64,000 nt of DNA from an uncultured bacterium (GTDB lineage: Bacteria; Bacillota; Clostridia; Lachnospirales; Lachnospiraceae). Numbering within the stretch: position 1 is the stretch's first letter; every line of letters starts with the position of its first letter. Below, in pieces: positions 9,699 to 29,716 of this stretch. Where the stretch lies: the NCBI GenBank assembly GCA_947647735.1, contig CANSLJ010000001.1, positions 186,001 through 250,000 of the forward strand. Reading direction: 5' to 3'. The position numbers and the translations under genes are program-made. The notes below the pieces were generated by a model that made no database searches, was not told where the DNA came from, and saw only the letters and a list, made by a program, of their open reading frames with translations.

Positions 9699-11714
9699 TC
9701 ACACTTTCAGCGCATAGTCGCTTCTATCCAGCGAAAAATTAGGATTATAATAAGGATCGCCCTTTGCAAGCGCCTCCTTCCACTTCTCCCTGAAGCGCGC
9801 CGACTCCTCATCATAGCGCCTTGCCTTCTCGCCCGCATCATCCAGCCCTCTGGAGATGGACTCAAAATGATACAGCTCGCAGTAAGGATTCCAGACATTT
9901 AAAAGCCCTCTCTCCCTCAGCCGCAGGCAGAAATCCACATCATTCAGCGCTATGGCAAAACTCTCATCCAGCCCGCCCAGTTCTTCATAGAGGGCGCGCC
10001 TCATCATCAGACAGGCTCCCGTCACCGCTGTCACATTCTGCGCATAACAGAGCCGCCCCATATATCCCAGATTGGTCTGTGCCACTCGGTAGTGGGTATG
10101 TCCCGCCGTCCGGTGCGCTCCCAGTCCGATCACGATCCCCGCATGCTGGATCGTCTTATCACCGTAATAAAGCTTCGCCCCCACTGCGCCCACATCGCTT
10201 CGCTGGGCATACATCAAAAGTTCCTCCATCCAGTTGATGGAGATCACCTGCGTATCATTATTGAGAAGCACCAGATATTCCCCGTCCGCAAAGGAAACGC
10301 CGTAATTATTGATCTTAGAATAATTAAACACTCCCTCATACCGCACAACCCGGATATTCGCATACTTCCCAAGGCTCTTATAATATTCCTCTATCTCCGT
10401 CGTGACAGAATTGTTCTCCACAATGATGATCTCGTAGTTATCGTAGGTGGACTCCTTCAGGATCGACTCCACGCACCTCGACAGATCCTCCACATGATCC
10501 TTGTTCGGAATCACAATGGATAGCTTCGGATTCCCCTGCACCTCATATTTCACACGAAAGATCGTCTCAAAGGCTTTTGTGCTGACGATCTCAAAATTCT
10601 CAAACCCGTTTACCGTAAGGTGATCCGCCACAGCTCCCCTCGCCGCCTCGATGGCATAGCTTTTCGCGTTGATATCCGCCGCCACACTCGCCTTGTGAGA
10701 ACGCCAGTAATAAAGAAGCTTTGGCACATGCGCCACATGCTTTGCCCGGGAAGTGAGACGCAGTATCATATCATGATCCTGGCTTCCGTCAAATTGGGAG
10801 CGGAACAGCTCCATCCCCTCCAAAAGCCTTTTATCAAACACGCTGAAATGGCAGATATAATTGTTGGCGCGCAGATTATCGATCGCAAAATCAGGCTTGA
10901 AATGCAGCGTCAGCATATCATCTATGGTCTTGTTTCCCTTGAAGGTTGTCTCGTCACAATAAATATAATCCGCACCCTCATCGCAGATTTTCTTCATATA
11001 CTCATATAAAGCAGACGGATGCAGCACATCATCATGGTCAAAAAGACCGATGTAATCTCCCGTCGCCATCTTCAGGCACTCGTTGGTATTTCCCGAAATC
11101 CCCTCATTCTTCTCCAGCTTCCGGTAGCAGATCCGTGAATCTTTCTTCGCATATTCCTTACAGATCTCTCCCACGAAGCCATGCTCCCCGTCGGAACCGT
11201 CCGCCAGACAAAGCTGCCAGTTCTCATAGGTCTGGTTCACCACCGAATCCAGCATCTCCGTCAGAAACTTCCTCGGCGTATTATAGAGAGGCACTAAGAT
11301 GCTGAAACAGATCTGTCTGGAAAATTTTTCCTCCCGCTGCCTCTTCGCCTCCTCCGGCGAAGGGAAACTCGCGCTGCCATGCTGTGTCCGCGCCTGCTTC
11401 TCTATCATCTTGTTCCTGACCTTCCGGGCGATCCCCCTCGGTGAGCCGTAATTCCCCACCCGCTCCTTCGTCCGCTTCGTCCAGTGATAAAAGCTCCTCA
11501 GAGGTTTGGACAGCTTCCAGATACCGCTGCTCTTGATCCGCACCAGCTTACCCGATAAATCCTCCACCTGTGCATTGGCATCGGAGAGACGCCCTGCCAG
11601 CCGCGCAGACTTTTTCTTCTCCCTGAGATAAGCCTCCCGATAATAAACGAGCTGTTCTTCCTCCGATAACTCCTCCGGTATGATCTCTGCTACATTTTTC
11701 TGATTTTCTTCCAA
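9699..11714 (-). CDS. Large two-domain GT2 glycosyltransferase
   Basis: A 671-aa cytosolic glycosyltransferase with two GT-A (family 2) domains. The first, about residues 135-260, has FSILVPLYNTP and the metal-site region IGLFDHDDVLHPSAL. The second, about 395-640, has KLSIVIPNKDH, LVLLNNDTQVI and ALNDVDFCLRLRERG. Residues 20-85 form a charged, coiled-coil-like module shared with the next GT upstream. Enzymes of this layout extend rhamnan-type or other surface polymers. The start is TTG with AGGT about 9 bases upstream; no better ATG is near. It is third in a run of three large GTs after the methyltransferase-kinase. Donor and linkage are unknown; dTDP-rhamnose is plausible from the operon. 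Confidence 0.87.
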   Translation of the reverse strand: MEENQKNVAEIIPEELSEEEQLVYYREAYLREKKKSARLAGRLSDANAQVEDLSGKLVRIKSSGIWKLSKPLRSFYHWTKRTKERVGNYGSPRGIARKVRNKMIEKQARTQHGSASFPSPEEAKRQREEKFSRQICFSILVPLYNTPRKFLTEMLDSVVNQTYENWQLCLADGSDGEHGFVGEICKEYAKKDSRICYRKLEKNEGISGNTNECLKMATGDYIGLFDHDDVLHPSALYEYMKKICDEGADYIYCDETTFKGNKTIDDMLTLHFKPDFAIDNLRANNYICHFSVFDKRLLEGMELFRSQFDGSQDHDMILRLTSRAKHVAHVPKLLYYWRSHKASVAADINAKSYAIEAARGAVADHLTVNGFENFEIVSTKAFETIFRVKYEVQGNPKLSIVIPNKDHVEDLSRCVESILKESTYDNYEIIIVENNSVTTEIEEYYKSLGKYANIRVVRYEGVFNYSKINNYGVSFADGEYLVLLNNDTQVISINWMEELLMYAQRSDVGAVGAKLYYGDKTIQHAGIVIGLGAHRTAGHTHYRVAQTNLGYMGRLCYAQNVTAVTGACLMMRRALYEELGGLDESFAIALNDVDFCLRLRERGLLNVWNPYCELYHFESISRGLDDAGEKARRYDEESARFREKWKEALAKGDPYYNPNFSLDRSDYALKV

Positions 11715-11747: not shown

Positions 11748-14195
11748 TCATTCTTCGCTTCTTATCACCACATCGCTGCGCTGATAAGATAATCTGTCAT
11801 GCGGCACATCCCTGTACAGCATTCCCACCTTGTAACTGCCGGCGGCGATATCCTCCCGCAGCACCCGGCACACAAACCCTGACAGCGCAATATTTTTCTG
11901 CTGCGGCAGGATCTCCTCCACATCCGGGCGGAGCCGCTCCTTCACCGGGATCCGATAATAAAAATCTCCCTGCTCCGCCTCCAGGATAAGCCATCGCTCA
12001 AACAGGCTGTTATCCTGCCAGAGCATATAGCACCACCCTTCAGCTTCCAAAATATCCGGCTCCTCCAGATAGATCTTATGCTGCTTCCCCGCACGTTCCA
12101 CCGTCAGCATCACGGCGCCTGTCAGCACCCTCTGCAAAACCTCTTTTCCCTCTTTTTTTTCGGGAACAGCCGTTAAAAGCAGCCGCTCATAAGGATATTT
12201 ATAACCGATATGATAATCCGGCGCATTGTCCGTAAGCTGTTCATTATAATAAGGATCAAATCTATGGAACTGCGGATGCTTCTCATAGAGGTTTGTTTTT
12301 TCCTGTATGAGCCTGTACCACTTTTCCTCCGACAGATCATCCAGACCCCGGCTTGCAGACTCATGGTGCAGCAGCACCGCATCGTTTCTGAGCACATTCC
12401 TGTACCCCGCCTCCGCCAGCTTAAAGCAAAGATCCACATCATTATAGGAAACCGCCATCTCCTCATCCAGGCCACCAACCTCCCCGTAGACGGATCTGCG
12501 GACGAGCAGACAGGCGGCTGTCACCGCTATCATATCATAGGTTACCGCATTGTACCCGTAATAATAGATCCTGTCATCCGGAAACGTCGTCAGCTTGTGG
12601 GACGGGCCGATATGCATATTGGTAACGCCCGCATGCTGTATCCTCTCCTCCTTCGGATACCAGAGCTTTGCTCCCACCGCCCCTGTGCCGGGCAGCGATG
12701 CCTGTCCCAGCATAATGCGCAGCCAGTTTCTTTCTATGATCTCCACATCGTCGTTGAGCAGCAGAATAAACTCTCCCCTTGCCTCCCGCTCTCCCGCATT
12801 GCACATGGCGGAAAAATTGAAATCCATGGGCTGATACAGATAACGTACCTCTGCTTTAACAGATTCCAGAAAGCCCTCAATAGTTTGACGGTTTTCCGCA
12901 CTGCTTCCGTTATCCACCACAATAAACTCCACACACTCCCTCAGTCCCGGCAGATATGTGCGCTCCAGAAAAGAGCGGATACAATTCTGCAAAAGTTCCG
13001 GATGATCCTTTGAAAGAATGACGACCGATACGGCAGGCGTCCCCTCTTTACTATAAAAAGTATATTCCGGCACCGGAGACCATACCTCCGGATGTAATGT
13101 CTGACAGGGAAAGCTTTCACAGCCCGCCCCTTTCAGAAAATCCTGTTTTATCTGTAAAAACTCTTTTTCATATCCCCAGAACTCAGGATTCGCCTCCCCG
13201 CGCATCTTCCCTGTCTCCAGATAATATTCCCTGTCCGCCGGCATCTCAAAATCCGCGGTACTGTTCCGATGATATAAAACCAGATCCAATCCTGCGATCT
13301 CTGGAGCAGGCATATCCCCGTTCGGCTCTTTTCGGTCTTCCCCGTAATAAAATCCCGTCCGCCATATTTTGTCTTTATCGTATACCACAGCCTCCGGTTT
13401 CACAAAATAAGGCTTTAACAGGCGCAGCACAAAATCATACAGATTCAGCCGCACATCCTCATGGCCGGACAAAGATACCCCCTCGGCCCACGCTCTGTCC
13501 ACCGCAAACCAGCTTCCGAAATAGAAAAAACCAAGCAGCGTATCCGGTGACCAGCAGGGCTTAAACCAGGGAAAACACCTTTTCCCCCCTGAAATATGAT
13601 CCTCCGCCCCGTAGAGCAGTTTCGTATCAGGATAGGAGGCAAGCCACTCTTCCACATAAAAAACCGCCTGCTCATCCAGCTCTCCGGGACGATCCGCAAA
13701 CAGAAGGATATCCGGCTGATCCCCGCCTTTCCCGTCCGCCGTACTCTCCATCAAGGAAGACAACTCCCTTATCCCCGAAAGCCTCTGATAAGGAACCACC
13801 AGACAGCTCCTGCGCCTTTTGCCCTTTTCCGCCGCCAGAGCCTCCCGATACCGCTCCCGCAAAAGCGGCTCCTCCTCCCTGATCCACTGACTGTAACTGT
13901 CCCTCTGACAATACAGCCTCTCCTGGTACGCCTTCGCAAATCCTTCCGGCGCAGCCTCCTTCTTTCCTCCGTGCTTCAGCACGGAAGCGATATGCCTCGC
14001 CTTCCCGTACCCTCGCGCAAACAGGGAAGAGACCTGAGACATCTTATAAAGCGGATTGGCACGGATTGCCCTGTACTTCTCCCCCAGCTCTTCCCGCTTC
14101 CCCTCCGCATCCGCCACTTTCCCGGCCAATACGGTATTTTTTTTCTTCTCCGCCTCATACGCCCTGCGATAATACTCAACCCAACTATATTCCAT
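11748..14195 (-). CDS. Large GT2 glycosyltransferase with shared N- and C-terminal modules
   Basis: An 815-aa protein. Residues about 1-65 repeat the charged YYRRAYEAEKKK...LAGK module of the neighbouring 671-aa GT. The middle holds a partial GT2-like segment (KPCWSPDTLLGFFYFGSWFA) without a clear nucleotide-binding start, so it may be a degenerate first domain. The complete GT2 domain (about 380-650) has VSVVILSKDHPELL, FILLLNDDVEI and SYNDVDLCFKLAEAG. A C-terminal beta-rich domain (about 690-815) is shared with the 750-aa GT upstream. The chosen ATG has GGTGATC upstream; a GTG four codons earlier would overlap the preceding gene. It lies 5 bp after that gene. Confidence 0.85.
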   Translation of the reverse strand: MEYSWVEYYRRAYEAEKKKNTVLAGKVADAEGKREELGEKYRAIRANPLYKMSQVSSLFARGYGKARHIASVLKHGGKKEAAPEGFAKAYQERLYCQRDSYSQWIREEEPLLRERYREALAAEKGKRRRSCLVVPYQRLSGIRELSSLMESTADGKGGDQPDILLFADRPGELDEQAVFYVEEWLASYPDTKLLYGAEDHISGGKRCFPWFKPCWSPDTLLGFFYFGSWFAVDRAWAEGVSLSGHEDVRLNLYDFVLRLLKPYFVKPEAVVYDKDKIWRTGFYYGEDRKEPNGDMPAPEIAGLDLVLYHRNSTADFEMPADREYYLETGKMRGEANPEFWGYEKEFLQIKQDFLKGAGCESFPCQTLHPEVWSPVPEYTFYSKEGTPAVSVVILSKDHPELLQNCIRSFLERTYLPGLRECVEFIVVDNGSSAENRQTIEGFLESVKAEVRYLYQPMDFNFSAMCNAGEREARGEFILLLNDDVEIIERNWLRIMLGQASLPGTGAVGAKLWYPKEERIQHAGVTNMHIGPSHKLTTFPDDRIYYYGYNAVTYDMIAVTAACLLVRRSVYGEVGGLDEEMAVSYNDVDLCFKLAEAGYRNVLRNDAVLLHHESASRGLDDLSEEKWYRLIQEKTNLYEKHPQFHRFDPYYNEQLTDNAPDYHIGYKYPYERLLLTAVPEKKEGKEVLQRVLTGAVMLTVERAGKQHKIYLEEPDILEAEGWCYMLWQDNSLFERWLILEAEQGDFYYRIPVKERLRPDVEEILPQQKNIALSGFVCRVLREDIAAGSYKVGMLYRDVPHDRLSYQRSDVVIRSEE

Positions 14196-14200
14196 AAAGA

Positions 14201-16453
14201 TCACCACTTACATCCAATCGCTATCGTCTCCGCACTAAATCCATACAGCTTCTGCCTCGAGCAGGCATCCTCCCAGAAATACCCGATCAGATACTCCCCG
14301 GCGGGCAGCGCATCCCGCGGGATCCACACGCTCACGCCGCAAAGGCCCGGGTGGTCGATATAGGGCAGATTTTCCTCAATGTCCGGCCTGTAACATTCCT
14401 CATAGGGAATCTTCCACATCCCCTTCTCCTCCATGCCCGGTTCTGTTCCTGAACTCATCGGCTTTAAGAGCAGGCTCTTTTCATAACGGCTGTTATCTAC
14501 GTTCACGGCGTAAGACCACCCCTGTATATAGTAATCCCCGCCGCCGCTCTTTCCCGTCCTCCAGGCACTCTCATCCCCGGTAAACTCCAGCCCCATGTAC
14601 AGGCATTCATTATGCCATACCGGATTCAGTTCCCCGTCGATCCGCAGCACTTCCGCTCTCTTTGACAATCTCTTTTCCTCAAAACGGCAGGCGGGCTCAA
14701 ACCCCCGGTCCAGAATATCCGTCACCAGCCTTTTGGAATAATACGCATCCCGATTCCACATCTCCGGATAAGTCTTATAGAGAAGATCCCGCTCCCTGTG
14801 CAGTCTTGCCACCTTCTCCTGCCCTGCGTCAAACCCGCGGCTCAAAGACTCATGGTGGTACAGAAAAGTGTGGTTGCAGCACACGTTCTGATAACCGGCC
14901 TTCAGCAGGTGAAAACAAAGTTCCACATCATTGAAAGCCACCTGCAGCCTCTCCTCAAATCCGGATACTTTCTCAAATACCTCTTTCCTGACCAGCAGAC
15001 AGGCGCCAGTCACCGCCGAGACATTCACGGCACATCTGTTGATCCCGTGATAATGTGCTTCCCGGTCCGACAAAAACTGCAGCTTATGGGCGGGCCCCAG
15101 ATGAATATTCGTGATGCCCAAATGCTGTATCTTATCAGAATCAGGATACAAAAGCTTTACGCCCACAGCGCCCACATAGTGCTTTGCCGCCTTCGATACC
15201 ATCAGGCGAAGCCAGTCTTCCCTGACGATCTCCATATCATCGTTAAGAAACAGCAGATACTTCCCCTTTGCTTCCTTTGCCCCCAGATTGCACATGGCGG
15301 AAAAGTTAAACTCCATCGGCTGATAGATGTAGCGGAAAGAATACTCCTCCTTCAACTGATCCCTGATCCGCAGGACCCTGTTCTTATTTTTCTCACTGCT
15401 GCCGTTGTCTATCACTATAATTTCTATATTTTTATAATCAGTCTGCTCCCGCAGGGAATGAATGCAGTTTGAGAGTACCGCCGGATTATCCTTCGACGGA
15501 ATGATAACAGACACGAGCCCCTGTCTTTCCTTCTCTCCCGGAATTTCCGCGTCGGAGTACAGATGCCCTCGCTTCACCCCGTCAAATTCCGCCTCCATCC
15601 CCCAGTCACTCTCAAAACACCTTTCAGGATCATGCTTCGGTAAAAACAATACCTTCTCGATATGTCCGGCTTCCCCCGCCTCATCGATACAGCACAGCAC
15701 AATTTCATACAGCAGCTTTTTCAGCCACAGTTCATCATCCGCCCCGCTTACGGCGGTTATATCGGTTCCACTTTCCGTACCGCCTGCGCCGGCTCCTGCT
15801 GTTCCACTTTCCGCTCCGTCTGCGCCGGCTCCTGCCGTTCCACTTTCTGTCCCACGCATGCGGGTTCCTTCCGTAGAAAGCAAAATCTTCTCTCCCGCCT
15901 GCTCCGCCAGCTCCCGTCTCACCGCAAACACGTTGCCAAAATAAAAAAAGGAGAGCAGCAAATCCGGAGACCACCCCGGCTTAAAATAACCATCCTCATC
16001 CCCGTAGGCGATCCCGCATGCCGGGTGCTCGGAAAAATAGCGCTCCGCTTCCGCTTCCGCCTCATCCGCAAGACAGGATGCATCCGGCGTGACGATCCAC
16101 AGATCTGCCCGCTCCTTATATGTTCCCTGTATCAAAGCACTTTCCGACGCCCCCGGAGACGCCAGAGCCCTTCCGCCAAATCCTGCACTCTTTTGCTCCC
16201 GCCGTGAAGCCTCCCCTGCCTCCATCGCAAATTCCGCAAACTCCTGCCAGGAAAGCACCGCCGTTGACAGACGCTCCGTTCCGGCTCTGTCTGCCCTCTC
16301 CTTCCATTGCAGAATCCCCGCCCTTTCCTCCTCCAGCAGTTTTTCCAGCCAAACGCCATAAGGAACGGCTTGCCCGGCAATCCGTTCCTCATATGATCGA
16401 TGTCTTCTTTGAACCAGCACTCTCTGTAAAGCTTTTTTCAGATAATTACTCAC
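14201..16453 (-). CDS. Large GT2 glycosyltransferase with a tandem-repeat insert
   Basis: A 750-aa paralogue of the 815-aa GT. It has an incomplete first GT-like segment (YFKPGWSPDLLLSFFYFGNVFA), a complete GT2 domain (about 315-570) with VSVIIPSKDNPAVL, LLFLNDDMEIV and AFNDVELCFHLLKAG, and a C-terminal beta domain with RPDIEENLP that matches RPDVEEILP in the paralogue. A Gly/Ala/Ser/Thr-rich repeat (about residues 200-230) interrupts the first segment. The GTG start has AGGAGG 8 bases upstream and overlaps the stop of the methyltransferase-kinase by 4 bp, indicating translational coupling. Its role is presumably polymer assembly on the cytoplasmic face. Donor sugar unknown. Confidence 0.86.
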   Translation of the reverse strand: MSNYLKKALQRVLVQRRHRSYEERIAGQAVPYGVWLEKLLEEERAGILQWKERADRAGTERLSTAVLSWQEFAEFAMEAGEASRREQKSAGFGGRALASPGASESALIQGTYKERADLWIVTPDASCLADEAEAEAERYFSEHPACGIAYGDEDGYFKPGWSPDLLLSFFYFGNVFAVRRELAEQAGEKILLSTEGTRMRGTESGTAGAGADGAESGTAGAGAGGTESGTDITAVSGADDELWLKKLLYEIVLCCIDEAGEAGHIEKVLFLPKHDPERCFESDWGMEAEFDGVKRGHLYSDAEIPGEKERQGLVSVIIPSKDNPAVLSNCIHSLREQTDYKNIEIIVIDNGSSEKNKNRVLRIRDQLKEEYSFRYIYQPMEFNFSAMCNLGAKEAKGKYLLFLNDDMEIVREDWLRLMVSKAAKHYVGAVGVKLLYPDSDKIQHLGITNIHLGPAHKLQFLSDREAHYHGINRCAVNVSAVTGACLLVRKEVFEKVSGFEERLQVAFNDVELCFHLLKAGYQNVCCNHTFLYHHESLSRGFDAGQEKVARLHRERDLLYKTYPEMWNRDAYYSKRLVTDILDRGFEPACRFEEKRLSKRAEVLRIDGELNPVWHNECLYMGLEFTGDESAWRTGKSGGGDYYIQGWSYAVNVDNSRYEKSLLLKPMSSGTEPGMEEKGMWKIPYEECYRPDIEENLPYIDHPGLCGVSVWIPRDALPAGEYLIGYFWEDACSRQKLYGFSAETIAIGCKW
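15766..15853. repeat. 36-bp in-frame tandem repeat, about 2.4 copies
   Basis: Units start at 15766, 15802 and 15838 (the last partial). Units 1 and 2 differ at only a few bases. Each encodes 12 residues of the type ESGTAGAGA-x-G-x within the GT at 14201-16453. Copy-number change would keep the reading frame. Confidence 0.88.
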
Positions 16454-18687
16454 AGGCGGAGCCTCCTTTTTGCTGCCCTTTCCACATCCAGCGCCATTTC
16501 CCTTCCGATCAGCGAACGCTCCATGCGAAGTTCCAATGCGTTCGTCTCCTCAAAAACCGCTCCCTGCAGAGAAATGATCAGATTCGGATCTTCTGTCGGA
16601 AAGATAAAACTTCCCGTATCATCCAGCCTTGTCCCGTTTGCCGTCAGCACCGAAGCCTTTCCGCTCCACATCAGGTCCCTGTCATTCCATTTCAGTTCCC
16701 TGATCCGCACCATACAGTCCGTAAACGCAGGATCGATCCTGATCTTCCGCACTCCCGCCTCCACAGGCAGCACAAGATGCAGTTCCTCTCCTTCTTCCGT
16801 CACCATCTCCCCCGCAAAGTAGGATGTCTCCTCCTGAAATCCCTGTCCTCTGTCCTCGTAGATCTGAATACACCGCTGATGCTCCTCCAGGCTTATCTTC
16901 GCCAGCACTTCCTCCGGCCTAAAACACCTGTGCCCGATCATATCGCGCAGTTCCACCATGGAACGATGATGTCCTGTCACAAAACGCTGAAAAGATTTTT
17001 CCTGTATCCGGTATTCTTCCGCCTCCTCATCGCTCACGCCAAGTTCCTGCATGATCCGGTCCAGATCCAGTTTATTCCTTTTGTTATCCTCCAGCAGATA
17101 ACAGTAAAAAGCCCGAAAAGCAAGCTCCTTTGTATCCATCTGTTTTCCAAAAGTCCACTCATAGTCGATCAGCGTCCAGATACTGTTGTTCAGCGCATCA
17201 AAAGGCTTTCCCGCATCCTTTGCGCTGATCAGGATATTGGAAAAGATCAGATCAAAATCCGCCACCGGCTCCTTGCTGTTATGATCGATCATCGACAGAT
17301 ATTTCCGGAAAAGTTCCAGAAAACCATCCATATCATCCTGTTCCAGGCGGGCATCCAGAAGTTCCGCCAGCGTAACGCCCTCTATATATTCCAGCTCCAC
17401 ATAGGGGCTCTCCCCCTCTTCCTTCACCAGCTTACAGCGGTTGATACGCAGCTCTCCGCCGGTATAGCGGTCCTTCAGCTTCCGGTAAGCCACATCCATA
17501 TTCCCGATATGCGTCTCCGCCTCTATTGATAACGGGCGTTTTCTTACCGCGAGAAGCTTCGGCAGATTGCTTTTCTCCTCCGGCGTCATGCCTTCCCTGC
17601 CCTCCATACCCGTCAGGCTCACCGGCAGAATCTCCGTCCGTATCTGATACTCCCGCTGCCTGTCATTGGAGTATTTTACATAACAGGTATCCGGCTTCTT
17701 CCCGATCACCGCCAGATAGGAATTCGCGTACAGGGGAAACAACCCTTCCCGCAAAATACTGTCAAAGACCTTTTTCTCATCAAACAGTATCATCCTCTCC
17801 CTGTCAAAATTCCGCATATTATTGGAAAGTTCCCCGATCTTCGGCTGATACTCATCCGAATACAGCGTTGTCATAAACTTGTAGTCCGGATAGGGATAAT
17901 AAAAAGCATACTCTTCCATTCCACAGTTCTCAAAGATCCTCTCCAGTCCGTTCCTCGTGAAAGTCCGCACCACGCCGCCGTCCGGATACCCTTCTATCCC
18001 CGCAAAATAAGTGCCCAGATGATCCTCCTTGCATCCGGCCCAATATTTCAATCCGAATTTATTTTCTATCGCAATGACAATATGCCCATCCTTTTTCAGA
18101 TGCTTTTTGATGATATGCAGAAAATTCTCAAAAGGAGTATCTCCCCCGATATAAGCCTGCGCATATTCAAACACGCCGATCAGACAGATATAATCATAAT
18201 CGCAGGGCAGCGCCGGCTCCACATCCTGAAAATTTCCCACATGGATCGTGATATTCTCACAGTTCATATGCCGGTAGGCGTTGATCATGCTCCGCTTCTT
18301 CGACAGGTCAACGCAGTCCACGCTCCCCGCCTTCCTCGAAAGAGCCCCTGTTATGGCGCCGCATCCCGCCCCGACTTCCAGAACCTTCATCCCTTTGTCA
18401 AGCGGCAGCCACTCCACAATATTCTCCCGCTGCCCGGACAGATGATACAGTATCTCCCAGCTCTTTCTCTCCTCAATAATGCGCGGATACTCCACCTCCG
18501 AATAATCCCTCGCGATCTGAAGCAGCTCGTCCTCCACCGCCCCATCACAATAGATATCCTCCCCGGAGTAATACGTCAAATCCAGATTCACCTTCCCGAT
18601 CTGTTCCGTCTTCTTATCTGCCATTCCATCCACCAACCACAATCTTATTTTCCAGTCCCCTATGATCCGATCTTCCGCTCTCGTCAT
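16450..18687 (-). CDS. Methyltransferase-kinase fusion, WbdD-like
   Basis: A 745-aa soluble protein. Residues about 95-220 are a class I SAM methyltransferase with motif I VLEVGAGCG (102-110), CVDLSKK and IVIAIENKFGLKYWAG. Residues about 330-560 look like a phosphotransferase/kinase fold: VELEYIEGVTLAEL (hinge-like), FDLIFSNIL (catalytic loop-like) and TLIDYEW (metal-site-like). A beta-rich tail of about 150 residues follows. The order recalls WbdD, which caps O9a-type polymannose by methylation and phosphorylation and thereby sets chain length for Wzt export. The neighbour on the promoter side is a Wzt-like ATPase with the matching C-terminal domain. An alternative ATG at 18624, with GGTGGA-like pairing, would give 724 aa. 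The capping role is inference. Confidence 0.75.
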   Translation of the reverse strand: MTRAEDRIIGDWKIRLWLVDGMADKKTEQIGKVNLDLTYYSGEDIYCDGAVEDELLQIARDYSEVEYPRIIEERKSWEILYHLSGQRENIVEWLPLDKGMKVLEVGAGCGAITGALSRKAGSVDCVDLSKKRSMINAYRHMNCENITIHVGNFQDVEPALPCDYDYICLIGVFEYAQAYIGGDTPFENFLHIIKKHLKKDGHIVIAIENKFGLKYWAGCKEDHLGTYFAGIEGYPDGGVVRTFTRNGLERIFENCGMEEYAFYYPYPDYKFMTTLYSDEYQPKIGELSNNMRNFDRERMILFDEKKVFDSILREGLFPLYANSYLAVIGKKPDTCYVKYSNDRQREYQIRTEILPVSLTGMEGREGMTPEEKSNLPKLLAVRKRPLSIEAETHIGNMDVAYRKLKDRYTGGELRINRCKLVKEEGESPYVELEYIEGVTLAELLDARLEQDDMDGFLELFRKYLSMIDHNSKEPVADFDLIFSNILISAKDAGKPFDALNNSIWTLIDYEWTFGKQMDTKELAFRAFYCYLLEDNKRNKLDLDRIMQELGVSDEEAEEYRIQEKSFQRFVTGHHRSMVELRDMIGHRCFRPEEVLAKISLEEHQRCIQIYEDRGQGFQEETSYFAGEMVTEEGEELHLVLPVEAGVRKIRIDPAFTDCMVRIRELKWNDRDLMWSGKASVLTANGTRLDDTGSFIFPTEDPNLIISLQGAVFEETNALELRMERSLIGREMALDVERAAKRRLRL

Positions 18688-18708
18688 CTGCTGGTTTTAC
18701 CACAGCCA

Positions 18709-18847
18709 GCCGCCTGAGGAAATAGATTTCCCATGAAGACTGTAGAAAAACGCCGGTACTTGGCGAGGTATTTTCGAGCCTAGTATCCGCTGCGTTTTTC
18801 TCCAAGCGGAAGCGCGTCTACATGGGAAATCTATTTCCTCAGGCGGC
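18709..18847. repeat. Long palindromic intergenic element
   Basis: Perfect 27-bp inverted repeats (18709-18735 and 18821-18847) enclose 85 bp that also pair internally: GAAAAACGC with GCGTTTTTC, and an imperfect CGG-TACTTGGC / CGGATACTAGGC pair nearer the tip. The whole 139 bp could form one long hairpin. It starts 7 bp after the wzt-like stop and ends 21 bp before the first possible start of the methyltransferase-kinase. No reading frame in it looks real. Confidence 0.9.
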
Positions 18848-18854
18848 GTCCCCT

Positions 18855-20168
18855 TTAAACAACCCGCACCACCGACTCCGGATCATAAAACCCCACCGTA
18901 TCCTTGTCGGAGATCACCGTCATATTCAACACATCGTACAGCCTGTGATAAACCGTAAAATCATCTCCCTCATAACCCGTCACCCCGAGCGAGAGCAGAT
19001 ACTCCCCTCCCTGCAGGTTCATATGCTGTGTAAAACTGATCTCCTTCACACAGCCCGCCTTCACAGGCTCCAAAAACGCCTTCTCCACCATCGTATTCGT
19101 GCCCGTGATCTCCGTGCCCTTGATATTCTTGACCGTAAAAGCAAAGATTGGCGCAGGACAATCCTCCGCAAAGGCAACCTTCATCCTGATCGTATACTCC
19201 TGCCCTTTGATGATCGCCGTAGTCTTTGTCCCCGCACCGTCCGTCAGACAGTACTCCTCAATCTGCGCCTTTTTGGAACCGTACTCCAGCAGCTCCGGAT
19301 TCACTCCCTGCTCCGCTTTTTTCTTTTTCTCCTCTTTCTTTTTCCTTGCATTCTCCGATACCTTTTCCCGGATATCCTCATCATGCAGCAGGCTCTCATG
19401 CTCCTTCTCATCCGGTATCTCGTACTGTCCGACCAGAACCTGCTTATAGGTATCGATCATCTCCTTCGGGCTGCCCTCCCCCAGCTTGATGCCCCTGTTC
19501 AAAAGCACTACCCTGTCACAATACTTGCTGATGCTGCTGAGATCATGGCTGACAAACACGATGGTCTTTCCCATCTCCTTGAACTCCTCAAACTTGTGGT
19601 AACACTTCGCCTGAAAAAACACGTCCCCGACAGAAAGCGCCTCATCCACGATCAGGATCTCCGGATCGATATTGATGGCAACCGCAAAAGCCAGCCTCAC
19701 AAACATACCGCTCGAGTAGGTTTTTACCGGCTGATACACATAATCCCCGATATCCGCAAAATCCAGAATATCCTGCAGCTTCTCATCGATCTCCTTCTCC
19801 GAAAAACCGATCATCATCCCGTTCAGATAGACATTCTCGATCCCGTTATATTCCATGTTAAATCCGGCGCCCAGTTCCAGAAGCGCAGAGATACGTCCGT
19901 TTACCTCCACTTCCCCCTTACTTGGCGAAAGCACCCCGGTAATGATCTTCAAAATAGTCGACTTCCCGGAACCGTTGGTCCCGATGATCCCCACACATTC
20001 CCCCTGGCGGATCTCCATATCGATGCCGTTTAACGCATAGTGCTTCTTATGCCTGACCTTCCTCGTCAGCCCCAGCGCCTCCCTGACCCTGTCTGAAGAT
20101 CTGTCATACAATTTATATATCTTTTCCACTCCTTTTACGGAAATTGCTATCGATCTCTTCTCTTCCAT
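18855..20168 (-). CDS. wzt: ABC polysaccharide exporter ATPase with Wzt C-terminal domain
   Basis: A 437-aa ATPase that powers glycan export with the permease encoded just upstream. Walker A is GTNGSGKST (63-71), the signature region is TYSSGMFVRLAF, and Walker B is ILIVDEALSVGD. These match the TagH/Wzt group. The extra C-terminal domain (about 290-437), rich in beta strands, matches the Wzt carbohydrate-binding type that recognises a modified chain end. An intervening Lys/Glu-rich linker is visible. The start has AGAGGA. It lies 32 bp after the permease gene. Together with the WbdD-like gene it suggests chain-end-gated export. Confidence 0.9.
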   Translation of the reverse strand: MEEKRSIAISVKGVEKIYKLYDRSSDRVREALGLTRKVRHKKHYALNGIDMEIRQGECVGIIGTNGSGKSTILKIITGVLSPSKGEVEVNGRISALLELGAGFNMEYNGIENVYLNGMMIGFSEKEIDEKLQDILDFADIGDYVYQPVKTYSSGMFVRLAFAVAINIDPEILIVDEALSVGDVFFQAKCYHKFEEFKEMGKTIVFVSHDLSSISKYCDRVVLLNRGIKLGEGSPKEMIDTYKQVLVGQYEIPDEKEHESLLHDEDIREKVSENARKKKEEKKKKAEQGVNPELLEYGSKKAQIEEYCLTDGAGTKTTAIIKGQEYTIRMKVAFAEDCPAPIFAFTVKNIKGTEITGTNTMVEKAFLEPVKAGCVKEISFTQHMNLQGGEYLLSLGVTGYEGDDFTVYHRLYDVLNMTVISDKDTVGFYDPESVVRVV

Positions 20169-20200: not shown

Positions 20201-21205
20201 TTAAAGCACATCCGCAAAATGCACCTTCAGCCTCTTAAAGATCAGCGCCCCGATACCGAACACCACCACCGTAAAGATCCAGAAATACATCGTCGAATAA
20301 AAATCCTCAAAAAACCAGGTTTCCTCACAGATCGCGCTCCGATACCCGTTCACAATATATACCAGTGGATTTATCTTTATGATCGTATTCCAGATCGGCG
20401 GCTTGTCGTCCAGCACCGCAATGCTCCAGAGGATCGGCGTCGCCCACATTCCCACCTGCAATATGATGGAAATGATCTGTGTCAGATCCCGGAAGAATAT
20501 CACGATCGCGCAGGTCGTATAGGACAGCGCCAGCACCAGGATAAACGTACAGAAGCTGTAATAAATGATCTGTATCGTGTAAACCGTCGGATAATACCCG
20601 TAACACGCCGACACGATCAGAAGCACCAGCACGAAAAACAGATGAATGAACGTGGCGGCGATGATCTTGATGATCGGCAGGATACTGATCTTGAATACCA
20701 CCTTTTTCACCAGATAATTGTACTCTAAAAGCGCCGTTGTCCCATTGTTCAGCGCCTCTGAAAAATAAAACCAGGGACACAGCCCCGCCGCCAGAAACAA
20801 TACATACGGCATACTTGTGCCACTGGATAAAAACTGCGCTTTCGATCCCATAAAGTTTTCAAATACAAACCAGTACATCACCACCGTGACCACCGGCTGT
20901 ACAAGCGCCCATATGATCCCTAAATAGGAGCCCGCATACCGCTTCTTAAAATCATTTTTCGACAGCTTCCAGATCAGCCTCCTGTTCTCAAAAAGCTCCA
21001 CCGGAAGCACCGTAAGCTTATCATAAAATATGATAAAAACCGCACAGGAAGCCGCGATCAACACACAGGCTATGATCTTCTTGACCAGCTCTTCCTGCTG
21101 GTCCGCAAAGGGATTATGATGCAGCACGATGATCAGTGCCATGATCCCCGCCAGTATACAGAAAATGGCGATCCCCATCTTCTTGGAAATTTTCTTATGC
21201 TTCAT
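20201..21205 (-). CDS. wzm: ABC-2 type polysaccharide exporter permease
   Basis: A 334-aa integral membrane protein of the ABC-2/TagG/Wzm family, with two extra N-terminal helices ahead of the usual six. The core reads LIWKLSKNDFKKRYAGSYLGIIWALVQP, the amphipathic entry typical of the family. It forms the channel for a lipid-linked glycan, energised by the downstream ATPase. The start has AGGAGA. The gene follows rfbC by 14 bp. Confidence 0.9.
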   Translation of the reverse strand: MKHKKISKKMGIAIFCILAGIMALIIVLHHNPFADQQEELVKKIIACVLIAASCAVFIIFYDKLTVLPVELFENRRLIWKLSKNDFKKRYAGSYLGIIWALVQPVVTVVMYWFVFENFMGSKAQFLSSGTSMPYVLFLAAGLCPWFYFSEALNNGTTALLEYNYLVKKVVFKISILPIIKIIAATFIHLFFVLVLLIVSACYGYYPTVYTIQIIYYSFCTFILVLALSYTTCAIVIFFRDLTQIISIILQVGMWATPILWSIAVLDDKPPIWNTIIKINPLVYIVNGYRSAICEETWFFEDFYSTMYFWIFTVVVFGIGALIFKRLKVHFADVL

Positions 21206-21219: not shown

Positions 21220-21783
21220 CTACGCACCCATGGTCTCTTTATAGGCGGTAAAACCACCCCACTTTGTATCTTTCTCCGACAGGATGAGCTCCATCCCCTC
21301 CGGAACCGGCCACTCGATGCCGATCTCGGGATCGGCGTAATAAATCCCGCCCTCATCATTCCCGTGATAAAAATCGGAACATTTATAACAGAACTCCGCG
21401 GTCTCGGAGAGCACCAGAAAACCGTGGGCAAAATTCTTCGGGATAAAGAACTGCTTTTTATTTTCCTCCGACAGGATCTCCCCGTGCCATTTTCCGAACG
21501 TGGGAGAACCCTTCCGCAGATCGACCGCCACATCAAAGACCTCGCCCCGGATCACACGCACCAGCTTATCCTGCGGGAAGTTCTTCTGAAAATGCAGCCC
21601 CCGCAGCACACCCTTTCTGGAGGACGACTGATTATCCTGCACAAACACCTGATCGATCCCCGCCTCTTTAAAATCATTGTACTGATACGTCTCCATAAAA
21701 TACCCTCTGCTGTCCCCGAAAACAGCAGGCGTAATGATCTTAAGTCCCTCGATCTCACAGGTCTCTACTGTAATTTTTCCCAT
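21220..21783 (-). CDS. rfbC: dTDP-4-dehydrorhamnose 3,5-epimerase
   Basis: A 187-aa cupin-fold enzyme converting dTDP-4-keto-6-deoxy-D-glucose to dTDP-4-keto-L-rhamnose. The family core VLRGLHFQ gives the catalytic His64, and FDVAVDLRKGSPTFGKW is also typical. The ATG at 21783 has GGAG 9 bases upstream; a TTG five codons earlier overlaps that ribosome site and is not chosen. The final reductase gene rfbD is not in the window, so either it is elsewhere or the keto-sugar has another fate. Confidence 0.94.
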   Translation of the reverse strand: MGKITVETCEIEGLKIITPAVFGDSRGYFMETYQYNDFKEAGIDQVFVQDNQSSSRKGVLRGLHFQKNFPQDKLVRVIRGEVFDVAVDLRKGSPTFGKWHGEILSEENKKQFFIPKNFAHGFLVLSETAEFCYKCSDFYHGNDEGGIYYADPEIGIEWPVPEGMELILSEKDTKWGGFTAYKETMGA

Positions 21784-21807
21784 TTTCCAACACTCCAATC
21801 CCTATTT

Positions 21808-23142
21808 TTAGTAAGCCAGATAACTGATATCCAGATCCACCCTTCCTTCGATACCGTCCACGCTTCCCGAGGACGTGTACTGCCAGAAGTGATAATTTCC
21901 CGCATACACCGGACTCTCCCTGTACTCCGCCAGCCATATGATATGATCCTGCAGCATATCCATCCGCAGCCTCGTCCTGAACCAGTTCCTGCTGCCGTAG
22001 ATGCCACCGGTATACCCCGCATCCTCCACGGTCTGGCAGAACGCCTGACACACTTTCGTCCTGGTTTCCATATCCAGCCCGTCAGCACGTCCGTTTCCTC
22101 CGGCGCCTTCCGTATCGATAAAGATCGGGTAGGTCACCCTGTAATCTCTGCACAGCGCGATCGCCATACTGGCTTCCTCCACAGCCTCCACCTCGTTGGT
22201 CGCCTGCGTGAAGAAATATACGCCCACTTTCAGCCCCGCATTCAGCGCGCCCTGCATATTCTCCCTGAAATACGGATCTTCCACCAGCGCTCCTGTGGAG
22301 GACCCGCGGTAACCGCAGCGAATGATCGCATATGTAATACCCGCATTCCTCACTCTGTCCCAGTCGATACTGCCGTTCCACTTGGACACATCGATACCCA
22401 TCTGGCCTTCCTCGCCCAGTTCCCGCATATCCACGATCTCCGTATCGTCGGCGTCCTCCAGCGCATCCTTCTGTTCGGTATCCTCCTCCTCCGCGATGAT
22501 CTCCGCCTCTGTTTTCATCAGCAGCGTGATATCCGGAATCGCCGTATACTCCACCTTGTCCTTTACTGACACAAGTGTCGGTTTTGGCACCTCATAATCG
22601 GAGGCCTCCGTCAGCGTCACCTCATATTCACCGGCACTTAACCCGCTGATATAGATAACGCCGTCCTTATCCTGATCTTTATAACTTCCTCTGTCCTTCA
22701 AATTGATCACAAAGGGCACCCCGGTCACAACAGCACCGCTGCCGTCCAGAATCTGTATCCGCAGATCCTGCTCCACCGAAGTCGTCACAAAATAGAGGCT
22801 CTTTTCATTCGCCTCCAACAGCTTCTTTTCATAACTGGTGAGTTCCCTGTCAAAAAAGGTCTCATCCCGCAGAAAGGCACGCAGATCATCCCCGGTCTGC
22901 AGGGAGGGATCCGATCCGGCAAACCCTTCCTTCGCATAATTTCCCGGCTCATCTTCCGCCTCGCCGTCCTCCGTATCTCCCTCTACCAGAGCATCTATCT
23001 CGGAAGGTGCCTCCTCCTTTGCCTCCTCACCGGGCAGTCTCCTTTTGATCCTGGAGAAATTTCCCAAAGCCGCCACGACGACGACCAGCAATATCATAGC
23101 GATACTGATCAGAATAGCCCGTCTCTTTATCCTAGAGTCCAT
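21808..23142 (-). CDS. Membrane-anchored GH25 lysozyme-like protein
   Basis: A 444-aa type II membrane protein: a short basic N-terminus, one transmembrane helix (about residues 8-27), an acidic linker, a Cna-B/transthyretin-like domain (about 115-205, with [18 protein letters not shown]), another acidic linker, and a C-terminal GH25 domain (about 250-444). The domain has GIDVSKWNG and the catalytic Asp-x-Glu in IFIDTEG, so muramidase activity outside the cell is expected. The ATG at 23142 has AGAGG and overlaps rfbA by 11 bp. A larger GH25 paralogue lies two genes toward the promoter. It may open peptidoglycan locally for export or attachment of the glycan; that is inference. Confidence 0.88.
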
Positions 23143-24001
23143 TCGCAACCTCTGTCAGATATTTTCCGTAGTCCGTTTTCAGAAGCGGCTCCGCCAGCGC
23201 AAGAAGCTGCTCCTTCGTGATAAATCCCCTCTTATAAGCGATCTCCTCAATACAGGAGATATACAGCCCCTGCCGTTTCTGGAACGCCGCCACAAAGTCA
23301 GCCGCATCCAGCAGAGAATCATGATTTCCCGTATCCAGCCACGCAAATCCTCTGCCCATGGTCTCCACCTGTAGATCACCCCTACGCAGATACTCGTTAT
23401 TGATACTGGTGATCTCGATCTCCCCCCGCGCTGAAGGTTTTACATTTTTTGCGATCTCCACCACGTCGTTGTCATAAAAGTAGAGCCCCGGCACCGCATA
23501 ATTGCTCTTCGGCTTCTCCGGTTTCTCCTCGATGGAGAGCGCTCTGCCGTTCTCATCAAACTCCACCACGCCGTACTCCCTCGGATCTCTCACATAGTAC
23601 CCGAAGATCGTGGCTCCCTTTTCTCTCGAAGCCACCTGCAGCAGAAGCTTTGAGAAACTCTGCCCGTAGAAGATATTATCTCCCAGCACGAGCGCCACAT
23701 GATCCTTCTCGATAAACTCTTCCCCGATCAGGAAAGCGTCCGCCAGTCCTCTGGGCTGTTCCTGCACCGCATAGGAAAAAGACAGGCCGAGCTGCTCCCC
23801 GGTCCCGAACAGATCCTGAAATACAGGGAGGTCCCTGGGTGTCGAAATGATCAGTATTTCCCGGATGCCTGCCAGCATCAGCGTGGAAAGCGGATAGTAG
23901 ATCATCGGCTTGTCATAAACCGGCATGATCTGTTTTGAAATAGCTTTTGTCAGCGGATAGAGCCTTGTCCCGGCGCCGCCTGCAAGTATGATTCCCTTCA
24001 T
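23132..24001 (-). CDS. rfbA: Glucose-1-phosphate thymidylyltransferase
   Basis: A 289-aa nucleotidyltransferase making dTDP-glucose from glucose-1-phosphate and dTTP, the entry step to dTDP-6-deoxysugars. It has the N-terminal signature [11 protein letters not shown] (8-18), with [10 protein letters not shown] and [15 protein letters not shown] further on. The start has AAAGGA. It follows rfbB by 81 bp and overlaps the GH25 gene. Its product feeds rfbB and, through it, both rfbC here and the wecE-like gene in the other operon. Confidence 0.95.
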
Positions 24002-24082: not shown

Positions 24083-25162
24083 TTATACGTTATACATCTT
24101 ATTGTAATATTCCTGATAACTGCCGCTGGTCACGTTCTTCATCCATTCCTCATGCTCGAAGAACCATGCGATCGTCCTGCGGATCCCCTCTTTGAACATG
24201 GTCTCCGGCTCCCAGCCGATCTCCGCCTTAATCTTATCCGGCGCAATGGCATAACGCCTGTCATGTCCTTTCCTGTCCTCCACATAGGTGATCAGATCCT
24301 TGTTCACAAGCGCTTTTCTCGGATCGTCATCCGCCAGCATCTCCTGCAATGTCTCTATGATGATATTGATGATCTCAATATTCTGTTTTTCGTTATGGCC
24401 TCCGATATTGTAAGTCTCAAACAGCCTGCCCTGCTCCTGCACCATATCGATGGCTTTCGCGTGGTCCTCCACATAGAGCCAGTCCCTGACATTCTTTCCA
24501 TCTCCGTATACCGGAAGCTTTTTCCCCTGCAGCGCATTGTTGATGATCAGCGGGATCAGCTTCTCCGGGAACTGGAAGGGCCCGTAATTGTTGGAACAGT
24601 TGGTAATATTGGCAGGGAACTTATAGGTATCCATATACGCCCTTACCAACATGTCCGAACTTGCCTTGCTGGCGGAATAGGGGCTGTGAGGCGCGTAGGG
24701 TGTTGTCTCATAGAAATACTCTCCCTCATTCTCCAGAGAACCGTACACCTCGTCCGTGGAAACATGCAGGAATTTCTTTCCCTCCTGAAAGCTGCCGTTC
24801 GGTTTCTCCCATGCTGCTTTCGCACAGTTCAGCATAACGGCTGTCCCCAGCACGTTTGTCTTAACAAAAACCTCCGGCTCCCTGATGCTTCTGTCCACAT
24901 GGCTCTCCGCCGCGAAATGAACCACCCTGTCGATATCATTTTCCGCAAAGATCTTTCCGATCGCCTCTTTGTCGCAGATGTCCGCCCTGATAAAGGTATA
25001 ATTGTCCCTCTTTTCAACATCCCGCAGATTTTCCAGATTCCCTGCATAGGTCAGGGCATCCACATTGATGATGCGGATCTCATTATCATATTTTTTAAAC
25101 ATATAATGAATATAATTGGAACCGATAAATCCCGCTCCGCCTGTTACCAGATAAGTTCTCAT
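24083..25162 (-). CDS. rfbB: dTDP-glucose 4,6-dehydratase
   Basis: A 359-aa short-chain dehydrogenase/reductase-type enzyme making dTDP-4-keto-6-deoxyglucose. The NAD-binding motif is GGAGFIG (8-14), the catalytic Tyr-Lys pair is in YSASKASSD, and HVSTDEVYG is diagnostic. The ATG at 25162 has AGGAGG 7 bases upstream; longer in-frame starts are unsupported. It lies 17 bp after the large GH25 gene. Confidence 0.95.
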   Translation of the reverse strand: MRTYLVTGGAGFIGSNYIHYMFKKYDNEIRIINVDALTYAGNLENLRDVEKRDNYTFIRADICDKEAIGKIFAENDIDRVVHFAAESHVDRSIREPEVFVKTNVLGTAVMLNCAKAAWEKPNGSFQEGKKFLHVSTDEVYGSLENEGEYFYETTPYAPHSPYSASKASSDMLVRAYMDTYKFPANITNCSNNYGPFQFPEKLIPLIINNALQGKKLPVYGDGKNVRDWLYVEDHAKAIDMVQEQGRLFETYNIGGHNEKQNIEIINIIIETLQEMLADDDPRKALVNKDLITYVEDRKGHDRRYAIAPDKIKAEIGWEPETMFKEGIRRTIAWFFEHEEWMKNVTSGSYQEYYNKMYNV

Positions 25163-25179
25163 ACCATTCCTCCTGTTTC

Positions 25180-28765: not shown

Positions 28766-29716
28766 ATGAATACTTTAAATGACTTTATCGAAAAATATCT
28801 GGAATACTGTAAATATAGAAAACGCCTGGATTCTAAAACGCTGAAAGCATACCAGATAGATCTGAAGCAGTACAAGGAATTCTGCGACAGTTTGGCCAAT
28901 GGATTTTCTAAGGACGCTGTAGACCACTTTATTACATATTTACACAAGCAATATAAGCCCAAAACTGTAAAGCGCAAAATTGCGAGCCTGAAAGCCTTCT
29001 TCCATCATATGGAATACAAAGAAGTAATTAAGGATAATCCCTTCGCGAAGCTGGATATCCGTTTTCGGGAAGCAAAACTTTTACCTAAAACAATTCCCTT
29101 CCATTCTATACGGACATTTCTGTCTACTATTTATATCCAAAAAGAAAAGGCACGTTCCGAATACCAACAACGATGCTGCATCAGAGATATCGCTGTCATC
29201 GAATTATTATTTGCCACCGGAATACGAATATCCGAGTTATGTGCGTTAAAGCCATCTGATATAGACCTGGAAAGCAGAAACATTCTGATCTATGGGAAGG
29301 GTTCCAAAGAAAGAATTCTGCAGATTGGAAATCAGGAAGTTCTTTCTGCCCTTCTCTTATATCAGGAAACTTTCCATGCGGATATTGAGTTTTGTGGATA
29401 TTTTTTTGTAAACAGGTTAAAGCACAAATTATCAGATCAGTCAGTCCGGCATATGATCAACCACTATGCGGCGCTAGCCGGAATCAGCCAGCATATTACC
29501 CCACATATGTTCAGACATTCCTTTGCCACGCTTTTGTTGGAGCAGGATGTGGATATCAGATATATACAACGGATGCTTGGACACAGTTCCATTAGTACGA
29601 CAGAGATTTATACTCATGTTTCTAATGTGAAGCAGAAGGATATTCTGGTACATAAGCATCCTCGGAATTTTATGGTGGTGGATGATTGTATTTCTACTAT
29701 CAATCAGTTATACTAA
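28766..29716 (+). CDS. Tyrosine recombinase (XerC/XerD-like integrase)
   Basis: A 316-aa site-specific recombinase with an N-terminal SAM-like core-binding domain (1-100) and a complete catalytic domain: Arg154 in TGIRISELC, Lys178 in YGKGSKER, His247 and Arg250 in HMFRHS, His273 in GHSS and Tyr282 in EIYTHV. All catalytic residues are present, so activity is expected. It is not beside an obvious prophage or conjugative element. Its place between two surface-glycan operons resembles recombinases that flip glycan promoters in other bacteria, but no invertible segment is evident here. A standalone mobile remnant is the alternative. Confidence 0.92.
   Translation: MNTLNDFIEKYLEYCKYRKRLDSKTLKAYQIDLKQYKEFCDSLANGFSKDAVDHFITYLHKQYKPKTVKRKIASLKAFFHHMEYKEVIKDNPFAKLDIRFREAKLLPKTIPFHSIRTFLSTIYIQKEKARSEYQQRCCIRDIAVIELLFATGIRISELCALKPSDIDLESRNILIYGKGSKERILQIGNQEVLSALLLYQETFHADIEFCGYFFVNRLKHKLSDQSVRHMINHYAALAGISQHITPHMFRHSFATLLLEQDVDIRYIQRMLGHSSISTTEIYTHVSNVKQKDILVHKHPRNFMVVDDCISTINQLY

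What the first reader, a model, noticed from the sequence alone, without database searches (positions are those of the whole stretch)
16450..20168. WbdD-like methyltransferase-kinase beside a Wzt with carbohydrate-binding domain in a Gram-positive-type locus
Seen: a fusion of SAM methyltransferase and kinase-like domains next to an ABC ATPase with an extra Wzt-type C-terminal domain. Known: in E. coli O9a, WbdD caps the chain and the Wzt C-terminal domain recognises the cap. Inference: this organism may control polymer length by chain-end capping, a mechanism described mainly for Gram-negative O antigens. The beta-rich tail of the fusion differs from WbdD's coiled coil and may serve as another ruler or docking module.
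Basis: partly seen in the sequence, partly recalled or inferred. Interest (0 to 1): 0.72.

Follow-up and report, generated by a model that had tools for sequence, protein, structure and literature searches.

The report
Sugar-chain capping enzyme beside its exporter
A gut bacterium of the Lachnospiraceae carries a methyltransferase-kinase next to a sugar-chain exporter, resembling an enzyme that Klebsiella uses to put a methyl-phosphate stopper on the end of rhamnose chains; if the function holds, many Gram-positive gut bacteria finish and export surface sugars this way.

Summary
Window 16450-18687(-) encodes methyltransferase, kinase fold and beta-rich tail; 18855-20168(-) encodes Wzt with a strong Wzt_C domain. 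The kinase part has no Pfam kinase match, but its model (pLDDT 91) matches kinase-fold proteins, and K383, D479, N484 and D508 are invariant in 40 of 40 sequences, including forms split into two genes. The closest characterised enzyme is not WbdD but the Klebsiella O7 terminator ORF6 (methyltransferase, kinase, Ig-like CBM, coiled coil, two glycosyltransferases), which puts methyl-phosphate on O3 of a terminal rhamnose. Through a proxy of ORF6, the methyltransferase HMM scores 173 bits against 8-13 for WbdD; kinase profiles match at 98.6% against 4%. In 74 of 80 selected named loci Wzt with Wzt_C lies directly upstream. Gram-positive chain capping is not new (WsaE methyl cap; C. difficile phosphate cap), but my searches showed no report of this enzyme type in Firmicutes. 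The variation here: the terminator ends without ORF6's coil; a coil-like segment with a shared motif sits on a separate glycosyltransferase. Reaction, cap and substrate are inferred.

The parts
16450..18687 (-). Methyltransferase-kinase-beta tail protein (745 aa), proposed chain terminator
   Evidence: ORF; Pfam; model; alignments
17683..18615 (-). Methyltransferase module, residues about 25-335; Y46, Y81, G106, G108, Y175 stand at the SAM-binding positions named for O7 ORF6 (Y28, Y66, G91, G93, Y158), D127 at E112
16870..17682 (-). Kinase-fold module, residues about 336-606; K383, D479, N484, D508, E510, W511 invariant
16453..16869 (-). Beta-rich tail, residues about 607-745, at the position of the Ig-like CBM of O7 ORF6
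   Evidence: DSSP of models; the tail's own fold was not searched apart
18855..20168 (-). Wzt, ATP-binding subunit with C-terminal cap-recognition-type domain
   Evidence: the only Wzt_C match found in this 87%-complete assembly
18882..19286 (-). Wzt_C domain (residues 295-429)
   Evidence: Pfam Wzt_C E 1.6e-41; conserved in the window plus 79 named loci and in 17 loci of other layout
20201..21205 (-). Wzm, ABC-2 permease
   Evidence: Pfam ABC2_membrane E 5e-16
21220..21798 (-). rmlC, dTDP-L-rhamnose pathway
   Evidence: NCBIfam TIGR01221 over cut-off, E 5.2e-73
23132..24001 (-). rmlA
   Evidence: NCBIfam TIGR01207 over cut-off, E 1.9e-148
24083..25183 (-). rmlB (rmlD lies on another contig, C13)
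   Evidence: NCBIfam TIGR01181 over cut-off, E 1.5e-145; rmlD
14201..16453 (-). GT2 glycosyltransferase (750 aa), ORF overlaps the end of the terminator gene by 4 bases
11748..14207 (-). GT2 glycosyltransferase (819 aa)
   Evidence: Pfam
9699..11714 (-). GT2 glycosyltransferase with two matched stretches (671 aa), counterpart of the GT part fused to the kinase in some genomes
   Evidence: Pfam; fusions L057, L058, L060, L061, L063
11490..11714 (-). N-terminal coil-like segment with SGIWKLSKPLR motif, proposed docking and ruler element
   Evidence: weak, home-made coil score

Best explanation
The 745-aa protein is a chain terminator of the Klebsiella O7 ORF6 type. GT2 enzymes extend a lipid-linked polymer containing L-rhamnose in the cytosol. 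The kinase module phosphorylates the non-reducing terminal sugar, probably rhamnose, and the methyltransferase module then methylates that phosphate, which stops growth. The Wzt C-terminal domain recognises the capped end and Wzm-Wzt exports the chain. The beta tail probably holds the growing chain. Chain length is probably set by docking of the terminator on the coil-like N-terminus of a separate glycosyltransferase. Shown here: domain order, predicted kinase and methyltransferase folds, invariant catalytic residues, gene context and kinship with O7-like proteins. Inferred: the reaction, the cap, the rhamnose end, export dependence, the tail's role and the ruler.
For: Kinase fold with complete K/D/N/D set. 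Same module order as ORF6: methyltransferase, kinase without a Pfam match, beta domain (against PMC11231755). ORF6 proxy P. asturiensis L153: all six SAM-site residues at the published numbers, and an Asp at 443 against the published catalytic D441. Kinase profile of six O7-like proteins matches the window family at 98.6%, E 1.2e-15. Fusions L060 and L063 join methyltransferase, kinase, tail and GT2s in the order of ORF6. Wzt with Wzt_C within 400 bases upstream in 74 of 80. rmlA, rmlB and rmlC in the cluster, rmlD elsewhere. Same gene order wzm-wzt-terminator-GT in E. coli HS, O9 type.
Against: No biochemistry and no glycan structure for this host. The ORF6 sequence itself was not held; a proxy was used. 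The single-sequence test of the kinase is weak: the wider kinase HMM reaches the proxy at 23.6 bits and does not list the Citrobacter homolog. The WbdD profile is shallow (3 sequences), which lowers its score. The SAM-site acidic residue is D in 52 and E in 29 of 81. The tail fold was not searched alone and its HMM barely reaches the proxy (E 0.19). The coil claim rests on a crude score (terminator 0.41 and Wzt 0.40 also reach the 99.9% background of 0.39) and on a motif in 38 of 50 partners. Wzt is not within 400 bases in 5 of 80 loci with upstream sequence, nor in L035, L053 and L059, and no Wzt with Wzt_C was in the stretches read for L060, L067 (contig end) and L071; L060 is one of the two full fusions.
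Confidence: 0.73

Rival explanations
1. WsaE-like direct cap: the methyltransferase O-methylates the terminal rhamnose itself, as in Geobacillus, and the kinase module acts on something else or only binds.
For: WsaE has an N-terminal methyltransferase and GT modules, and the cap is 2-O-methyl rhamnose (PMC2943079).
Against: Kinase catalytic residues are among only nine fully invariant columns of 410, and in 20 of 20 loci of varied layout the kinase is in the same ORF as the methyltransferase or the next one (these loci were picked from hits to the fused query).
Confidence: 0.1
2. Phosphate-only or cyclic phosphate cap, as in the C. difficile SLCT-11 S-layer glycan, with the methyltransferase acting on another group.
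For: A 2,3-cyclophospho-rhamnose end was reported in a clostridial glycan with an ABC transporter in its locus (PMC6254364).
Against: The enzyme behind that cap was not named in the passages seen; O7 ORF6, with the same module order, makes methyl-phosphate, though conversion to the methylated product was incomplete in vitro.
Confidence: 0.1
3. The enzyme decorates inner or side-chain sugars and does not end the chain.
For: A Lachnospiraceae rhamnan is said to carry other phosphate decorations (poly-glycerol-phosphate on the R. gnavus polymer, PMC12413058).
Against: Usual neighbour of a Wzt with Wzt_C (74 of 80), a domain known from cap-dependent exporters (PMC9445017; PMC11231755).
Confidence: 0.07

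Closest known systems
Klebsiella pneumoniae O7 ORF6 terminator (PMC11231755)
   Same: Methyltransferase, kinase without recognisable sequence family, then beta/Ig-like domain; beside wzm-wzt with rhamnose genes; SAM-site and catalytic positions correspond through the proxy L153; kinase profile match 98.6% with O7-like proteins
   Different: Here the terminator ends after the beta tail, with no coiled coil seen and no fused GTs; a GT2 with a coil-like N-terminus is a separate protein; host is Gram-positive
WbdD of E. coli O9a / Klebsiella O3
   Same: Methyltransferase then kinase, same gene order after wzm-wzt; WbdD entries are Foldseek ranks 1, 2, 3 and 5 for the whole model
   Different: Little sequence kinship (MT 7.7-13.4 bits, kinase profile 4%); WbdD has a coiled coil, and the section of PMC3482155 that I read describes no beta domain; substrate mannose
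WsaE of Geobacillus stearothermophilus S-layer glycan
   Same: Gram-positive, rhamnan, N-terminal methyltransferase, Wzm/Wzt export, proposed end cap (PMC2943079)
   Different: No kinase described in the passages seen; 2-O-methyl cap; sequence not held, so not compared
Aquifex aeolicus Wzt (8dku, 7k2t; 7k2t named as its structure in PMC9445017)
   Same: Best PDB match of the window Wzt, strong over the ATPase part (258 bits)
   Different: C-terminal domain match is weak (13 bits, domain E 0.33); that transporter recognises a 3-O-methyl cap (PMC9445017)

Membership tests
K. pneumoniae O7 ORF6-type terminator | N-terminal class I methyltransferase with the SAM-site residues of ORF6 | tested here: met
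   Pfam; fold; positions through the P. asturiensis proxy (the acidic residue is D or E)
K. pneumoniae O7 ORF6-type terminator | Kinase-fold domain after the methyltransferase with catalytic Asp, unlike WbdD in sequence | tested here: met
   fold; residues; profile match to O7-like proteins, not to ORF6 itself
K. pneumoniae O7 ORF6-type terminator | Ig-like CBM after the kinase | tested here: inconclusive
   Beta-rich domain in that position; fold not searched apart; HMM to proxy E 0.19
K. pneumoniae O7 ORF6-type terminator | Coiled coil (ruler) in the same protein | tested here: not met
   No helix after the tail except 729-744; coil score 0.41 against WbdD 0.67, by a crude home-made score. 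So filed as a variant, not as a full ORF6 member; other family members (L060, L058) carry the SxSWRxTKPLR-like motif after the tail
K. pneumoniae O7 ORF6-type terminator | Adds methyl-phosphate to the terminal rhamnose | not testable with these tools
   needs enzyme assay or glycan NMR
WbdD family (E. coli O9a) | Methyltransferase-kinase related in sequence to WbdD | tested here: not met
   MT 7.7-13.4 bits in three WbdDs; kinase profile 4.3% (shallow WbdD profile)
WbdD family (E. coli O9a) | Same two-domain fold order | tested here: met
   Foldseek ranks 1, 2, 3 and 5 are WbdD entries, E 9.6e-10 to 1.5e-8 over 478-531 columns, but TM 0.17-0.18 (query) and rmsd 17-20 A, so the domain arrangement is not the same
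WbdD family (E. coli O9a) | C-terminal coiled coil | tested here: not met
   (crude score)
WsaE-type methylrhamnosyltransferase | Methyltransferase fused to two rhamnosyltransferases | tested here: not met
   Window protein has a kinase fold and no GT module; the WsaE sequence was not compared
Cap-dependent Wzm/Wzt exporter | Wzt with C-terminal Wzt_C domain beside a capping enzyme | tested here: met
   Wzt_C E 1.6e-41; adjacency 74 of 80; that the neighbour caps is inferred
Cap-dependent Wzm/Wzt exporter | Domain binds the capped end and is needed for export | not testable with these tools
   needs binding and export assays

The most novel reading that the evidence does not exclude
A large share of Lachnospiraceae, a major gut family, end a wall or surface rhamnan in one conserved (methyl)phosphate cap despite varied glycosyltransferases; the terminator has been freed from its ruler, which sits in trans on a polymerase, and methyltransferase and kinase move between fused, split and polymerase-fused forms.
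Probability: 0.45. Interest if true: 0.68.

Novelty: new variant of a known kind. Interest (0 to 1): 0.56.

Why it matters
If true, the polymerase-terminator-export quality control worked out in Gram-negative O antigens also sizes surface sugars in common gut commensals. That would make their chain length, export and surface epitopes testable and suggests a chemical end group to look for in rhamnans such as those of R. gnavus, which act on immune cells in vitro (PMC12413058, passages; whether R. gnavus carries this enzyme was not tested). The natural gene splits also ask how a terminator without its own coil measures length.

Tried and rejected
WbdD membership was tested by HMM and profile-profile comparison and dropped on sequence grounds, although the fold comparison ranks it first for the two-domain model. 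Pfam, NCBIfam and PHROGs gave no kinase for the window protein; among 40 members of A2, APH matched 2, best E 0.0055. PADLOC gave mad2 E 8.7e-19 over the methyltransferase only (residues 78-211) and PD-T4-6 E 0.0055; a defence role was not pursued because the locus is a glycan cluster.

PDB sequence searches with the profiles gave only weak kinase matches in the rows shown (E 0.02-0.5, 0.16-0.19). The VIA list for kinase plus tail showed no WbdD among its 50 rows; that does not exclude it.

The phylum search tallies 240 of 398, but most listed rows hit glycosyltransferase residues at the end of the model (two GT-fused rows in A1) or a short methyltransferase stretch; only 12 genomes (own, 3 of the same family, 8 others) have a methyltransferase match at E <= 3.1e-63. 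Of these 8, L188 (G516) has wzm, Wzt with Wzt_C, then methyltransferase and kinase genes; L189 has both enzymes but no Wzm or Wzt in the stretch read; L192 and L193 have Wzt with a weak Wzt_C match near an ORF6-like protein (L193 runs off its contig before any GT); L190 and L191 have Wzt without a Wzt_C match; L194 and L195 were unclear.

The coil score is home-made: WbdD 0.67, window GT 0.50, terminator 0.41, Wzt 0.40, background 99.9% 0.39 (windows from three window proteins); L192, which reads as a coil by eye, scored only 0.44, so it is weak evidence. Twelve of 50 partner GTs lack the exact motif; the six of them that were printed carry variants of it. L066 (short kinase match) was left out when A2 was built, 39 of 40 relatives being used.

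The 80 named loci are the best 80 of 590, and fall into 73 clusters at 90% identity. L125 is the one whose kinase is in a second ORF; it accounts for the gap at each site, where 82 rows gave 81 letters. I did not look into whether L125 is two genes or a broken frame.

Papers: PMC11231755 part 1 of sections 11 and 13 plus passages; PMC3482155 abstract and section 4; PMC2943079, PMC6254364, PMC9445017, PMC12413058 and PMC13121745 passages only. A report of this enzyme type in Firmicutes was sought (listings of 8-25 open-access papers each) and not seen; subscription papers and preprints are not covered.
Full report
Observation. The 745-aa product of 16450-18687(-) matches Pfam methyltransferases at residues 93-257 (E down to 1.2e-8) and no kinase family; the 437-aa product of 18855-20168(-) matches ABC_tran and Wzt_C (E 1.6e-41). 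Best PDB sequence matches of the latter are 8dku and 7k2t (Aquifex Wzt; 7k2t is named so in PMC9445017), strong over the ATPase part and weak over the C-terminal domain (13 bits, domain E 0.33). Wzm (20201-21205) and rmlC, rmlA and rmlB lie upstream, three large GT2 proteins downstream. rmlD is on another contig, and this is the only Wzt_C found in the 87%-complete assembly.

Which family. PMC11231755 describes K. pneumoniae O7 ORF6: methyltransferase, a 223-residue kinase domain without sequence family whose nearest fold was AmiN, an Ig-like CBM, a coiled coil and two GT2 modules; it phosphorylates O3 of the terminal rhamnose and then methylates the phosphate (incompletely in vitro), and D441A abolishes phosphorylation. 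Orthologs listed there are alpha- and gammaproteobacterial and cyanobacterial, with a homolog in Methanoculleus. I did not hold that sequence. A 1457-aa Pseudomonas asturiensis protein found by similarity to the window protein (33.8% over residues 46-325; locus L153) has Y28, Y66, G91, G93, E112 and Y158 exactly at the ORF6 numbers and an Asp at 443, followed by IDVEWE, a stretch weakly like the window tail (E 0.19), a charged stretch that reads as coil by eye, and two GT2 stretches. I use it as proxy. The window-family methyltransferase HMM scores it 173.0 bits, the Citrobacter homolog 174.3, and three WbdDs 7.7 to 13.4. The kinase profile of six O7-like proteins matches the window-family kinase at 98.6% (E 1.2e-15, 186 columns); the window-family kinase profile matches WbdD (3 sequences, shallow) at 4.3%, in the register that pairs D479, N484 and D508 with D351, N356 and D369. 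As single sequences the O7-like kinases are weak: 23.6 bits for the proxy, no listed match for Citrobacter.

Distribution and architecture. In the same family (f1), 165 of 299 genomes match at E <= 1e-3, weak cross-hits included, and about 105 rows, own genome included, are at E <= 1e-60 by eye. Twenty neighbourhoods chosen for high similarity (L032-L051) all have the fusion with Wzt and Wzt_C upstream, 598 bases away in L035. Twenty chosen for odd layouts (L052-L071) have the kinase module in the methyltransferase's ORF or the next one in 20 of 20, L067 starting inside the methyltransferase at a contig end; 17 of these 20 have Wzt with Wzt_C in the stretch, not adjacent in L053 and L059, and L060, L067 and L071 have none. 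Some have the kinase fused to GT2 modules (L057, L058, L061), and L060 and L063 join all parts. Of the best 80 of 590 named loci (73 clusters at 90% identity), 79 have all three modules in one ORF, 74 have Wzt with Wzt_C within 400 bases upstream, one has no upstream sequence, and 5 have it further off or overlapping an ORF start that looks over-extended (L117); 73 have a homolog of a window GT within 6 kb downstream and 5 more have under 2.5 kb of sequence there. Wzt_C is strongly conserved in the window plus 79 named loci and in 17 others, for example R409 in 80 of 80 and 17 of 17, as one would expect if the cap is the same while the GTs vary.

Where the ruler might be. In ORF6 and WbdD the coil is in the terminator (PMC11231755). 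The window terminator ends with one 16-residue helix. The motif SRSWRMTKGYR of WbdD, SISWRITKPLR of L060 and SRSWKVTRPLR of L058 recurs as SGIWKLSKPLR near the N-terminus of the separate GT at 9699-11714, after a coil-like stretch. The motif pattern is in 38 of 50 strong homologs of that GT and in 0 of 80 terminators. I infer that the GT carries the docking and ruler part; the coil score is crude and barely separates the terminator from background.

Known versus new. End capping with proposed Wzt recognition in Gram-positives is on record: WsaE's 2-O-methyl cap (PMC2943079), and a 2,3-cyclophospho-rhamnose end in C. difficile SLCT-11, for which the authors speculated on a role like that of the O9a phosphate (PMC6254364). 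I saw no report of an O7-type methyltransferase-kinase in Firmicutes in five searches of open-access papers. I therefore rate it a new variant of a known kind. The reaction, the cap and the polymer are untested here. On checking I lowered the main confidence by 0.01 and raised the phosphate-only rival by 0.01, for the loci without adjacent Wzt and the incomplete methylation of the O7 product in vitro.

Noticed in passing
window 21808-23148(-) and 25180-28113(-): Two GH25 lysozyme-type proteins (one with Big_2 repeats; a SpaA-like match in the other is below cut-off) are interleaved with the rhamnose genes; a homolog of the smaller one is in 15 of 20 loci L032-L051 (my count). Role unknown, perhaps wall attachment or remodelling.
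   Followed up: partly
window 38594-53862(-): A second glycan cluster with NeuB, a cytidylyltransferase, a PylC-like ATP-grasp, a HAD hydrolase, DegT aminotransferase, GNAT, a GDSL lipase and GtrII: looks like a nonulosonic-acid-type pathway.
   Followed up: no
window 61230-63903(-): An ABC exporter (ABC_membrane plus ABC_tran) next to a protein matching GT52 and polysialyltransferase families.
   Followed up: no
window 28766-29716(+): A tyrosine recombinase (Phage_integrase) between the two glycan clusters on the opposite strand; possible switching was not examined.
   Followed up: no
window 53859-58609(-): Two large proteins (831 and 781 aa) without any Pfam match at E <= 1e-4.
   Followed up: no
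L154 8923-10872: The Citrobacter plasmid homolog has FEREW where most others have I-D-x-E-W, so the second metal-binding Asp appears replaced by Glu.
   Followed up: no
L157 9000-9266: An E. coli blood isolate has only the 3' end of wbdD left, next to an IS1 element (annotation).
   Followed up: no
window 16450-18687(-), residues 78-211: The methyltransferase part matches the PADLOC model mad2 at E 8.7e-19, a hint that this defence model may pick up glycan-locus methyltransferases.
   Followed up: no
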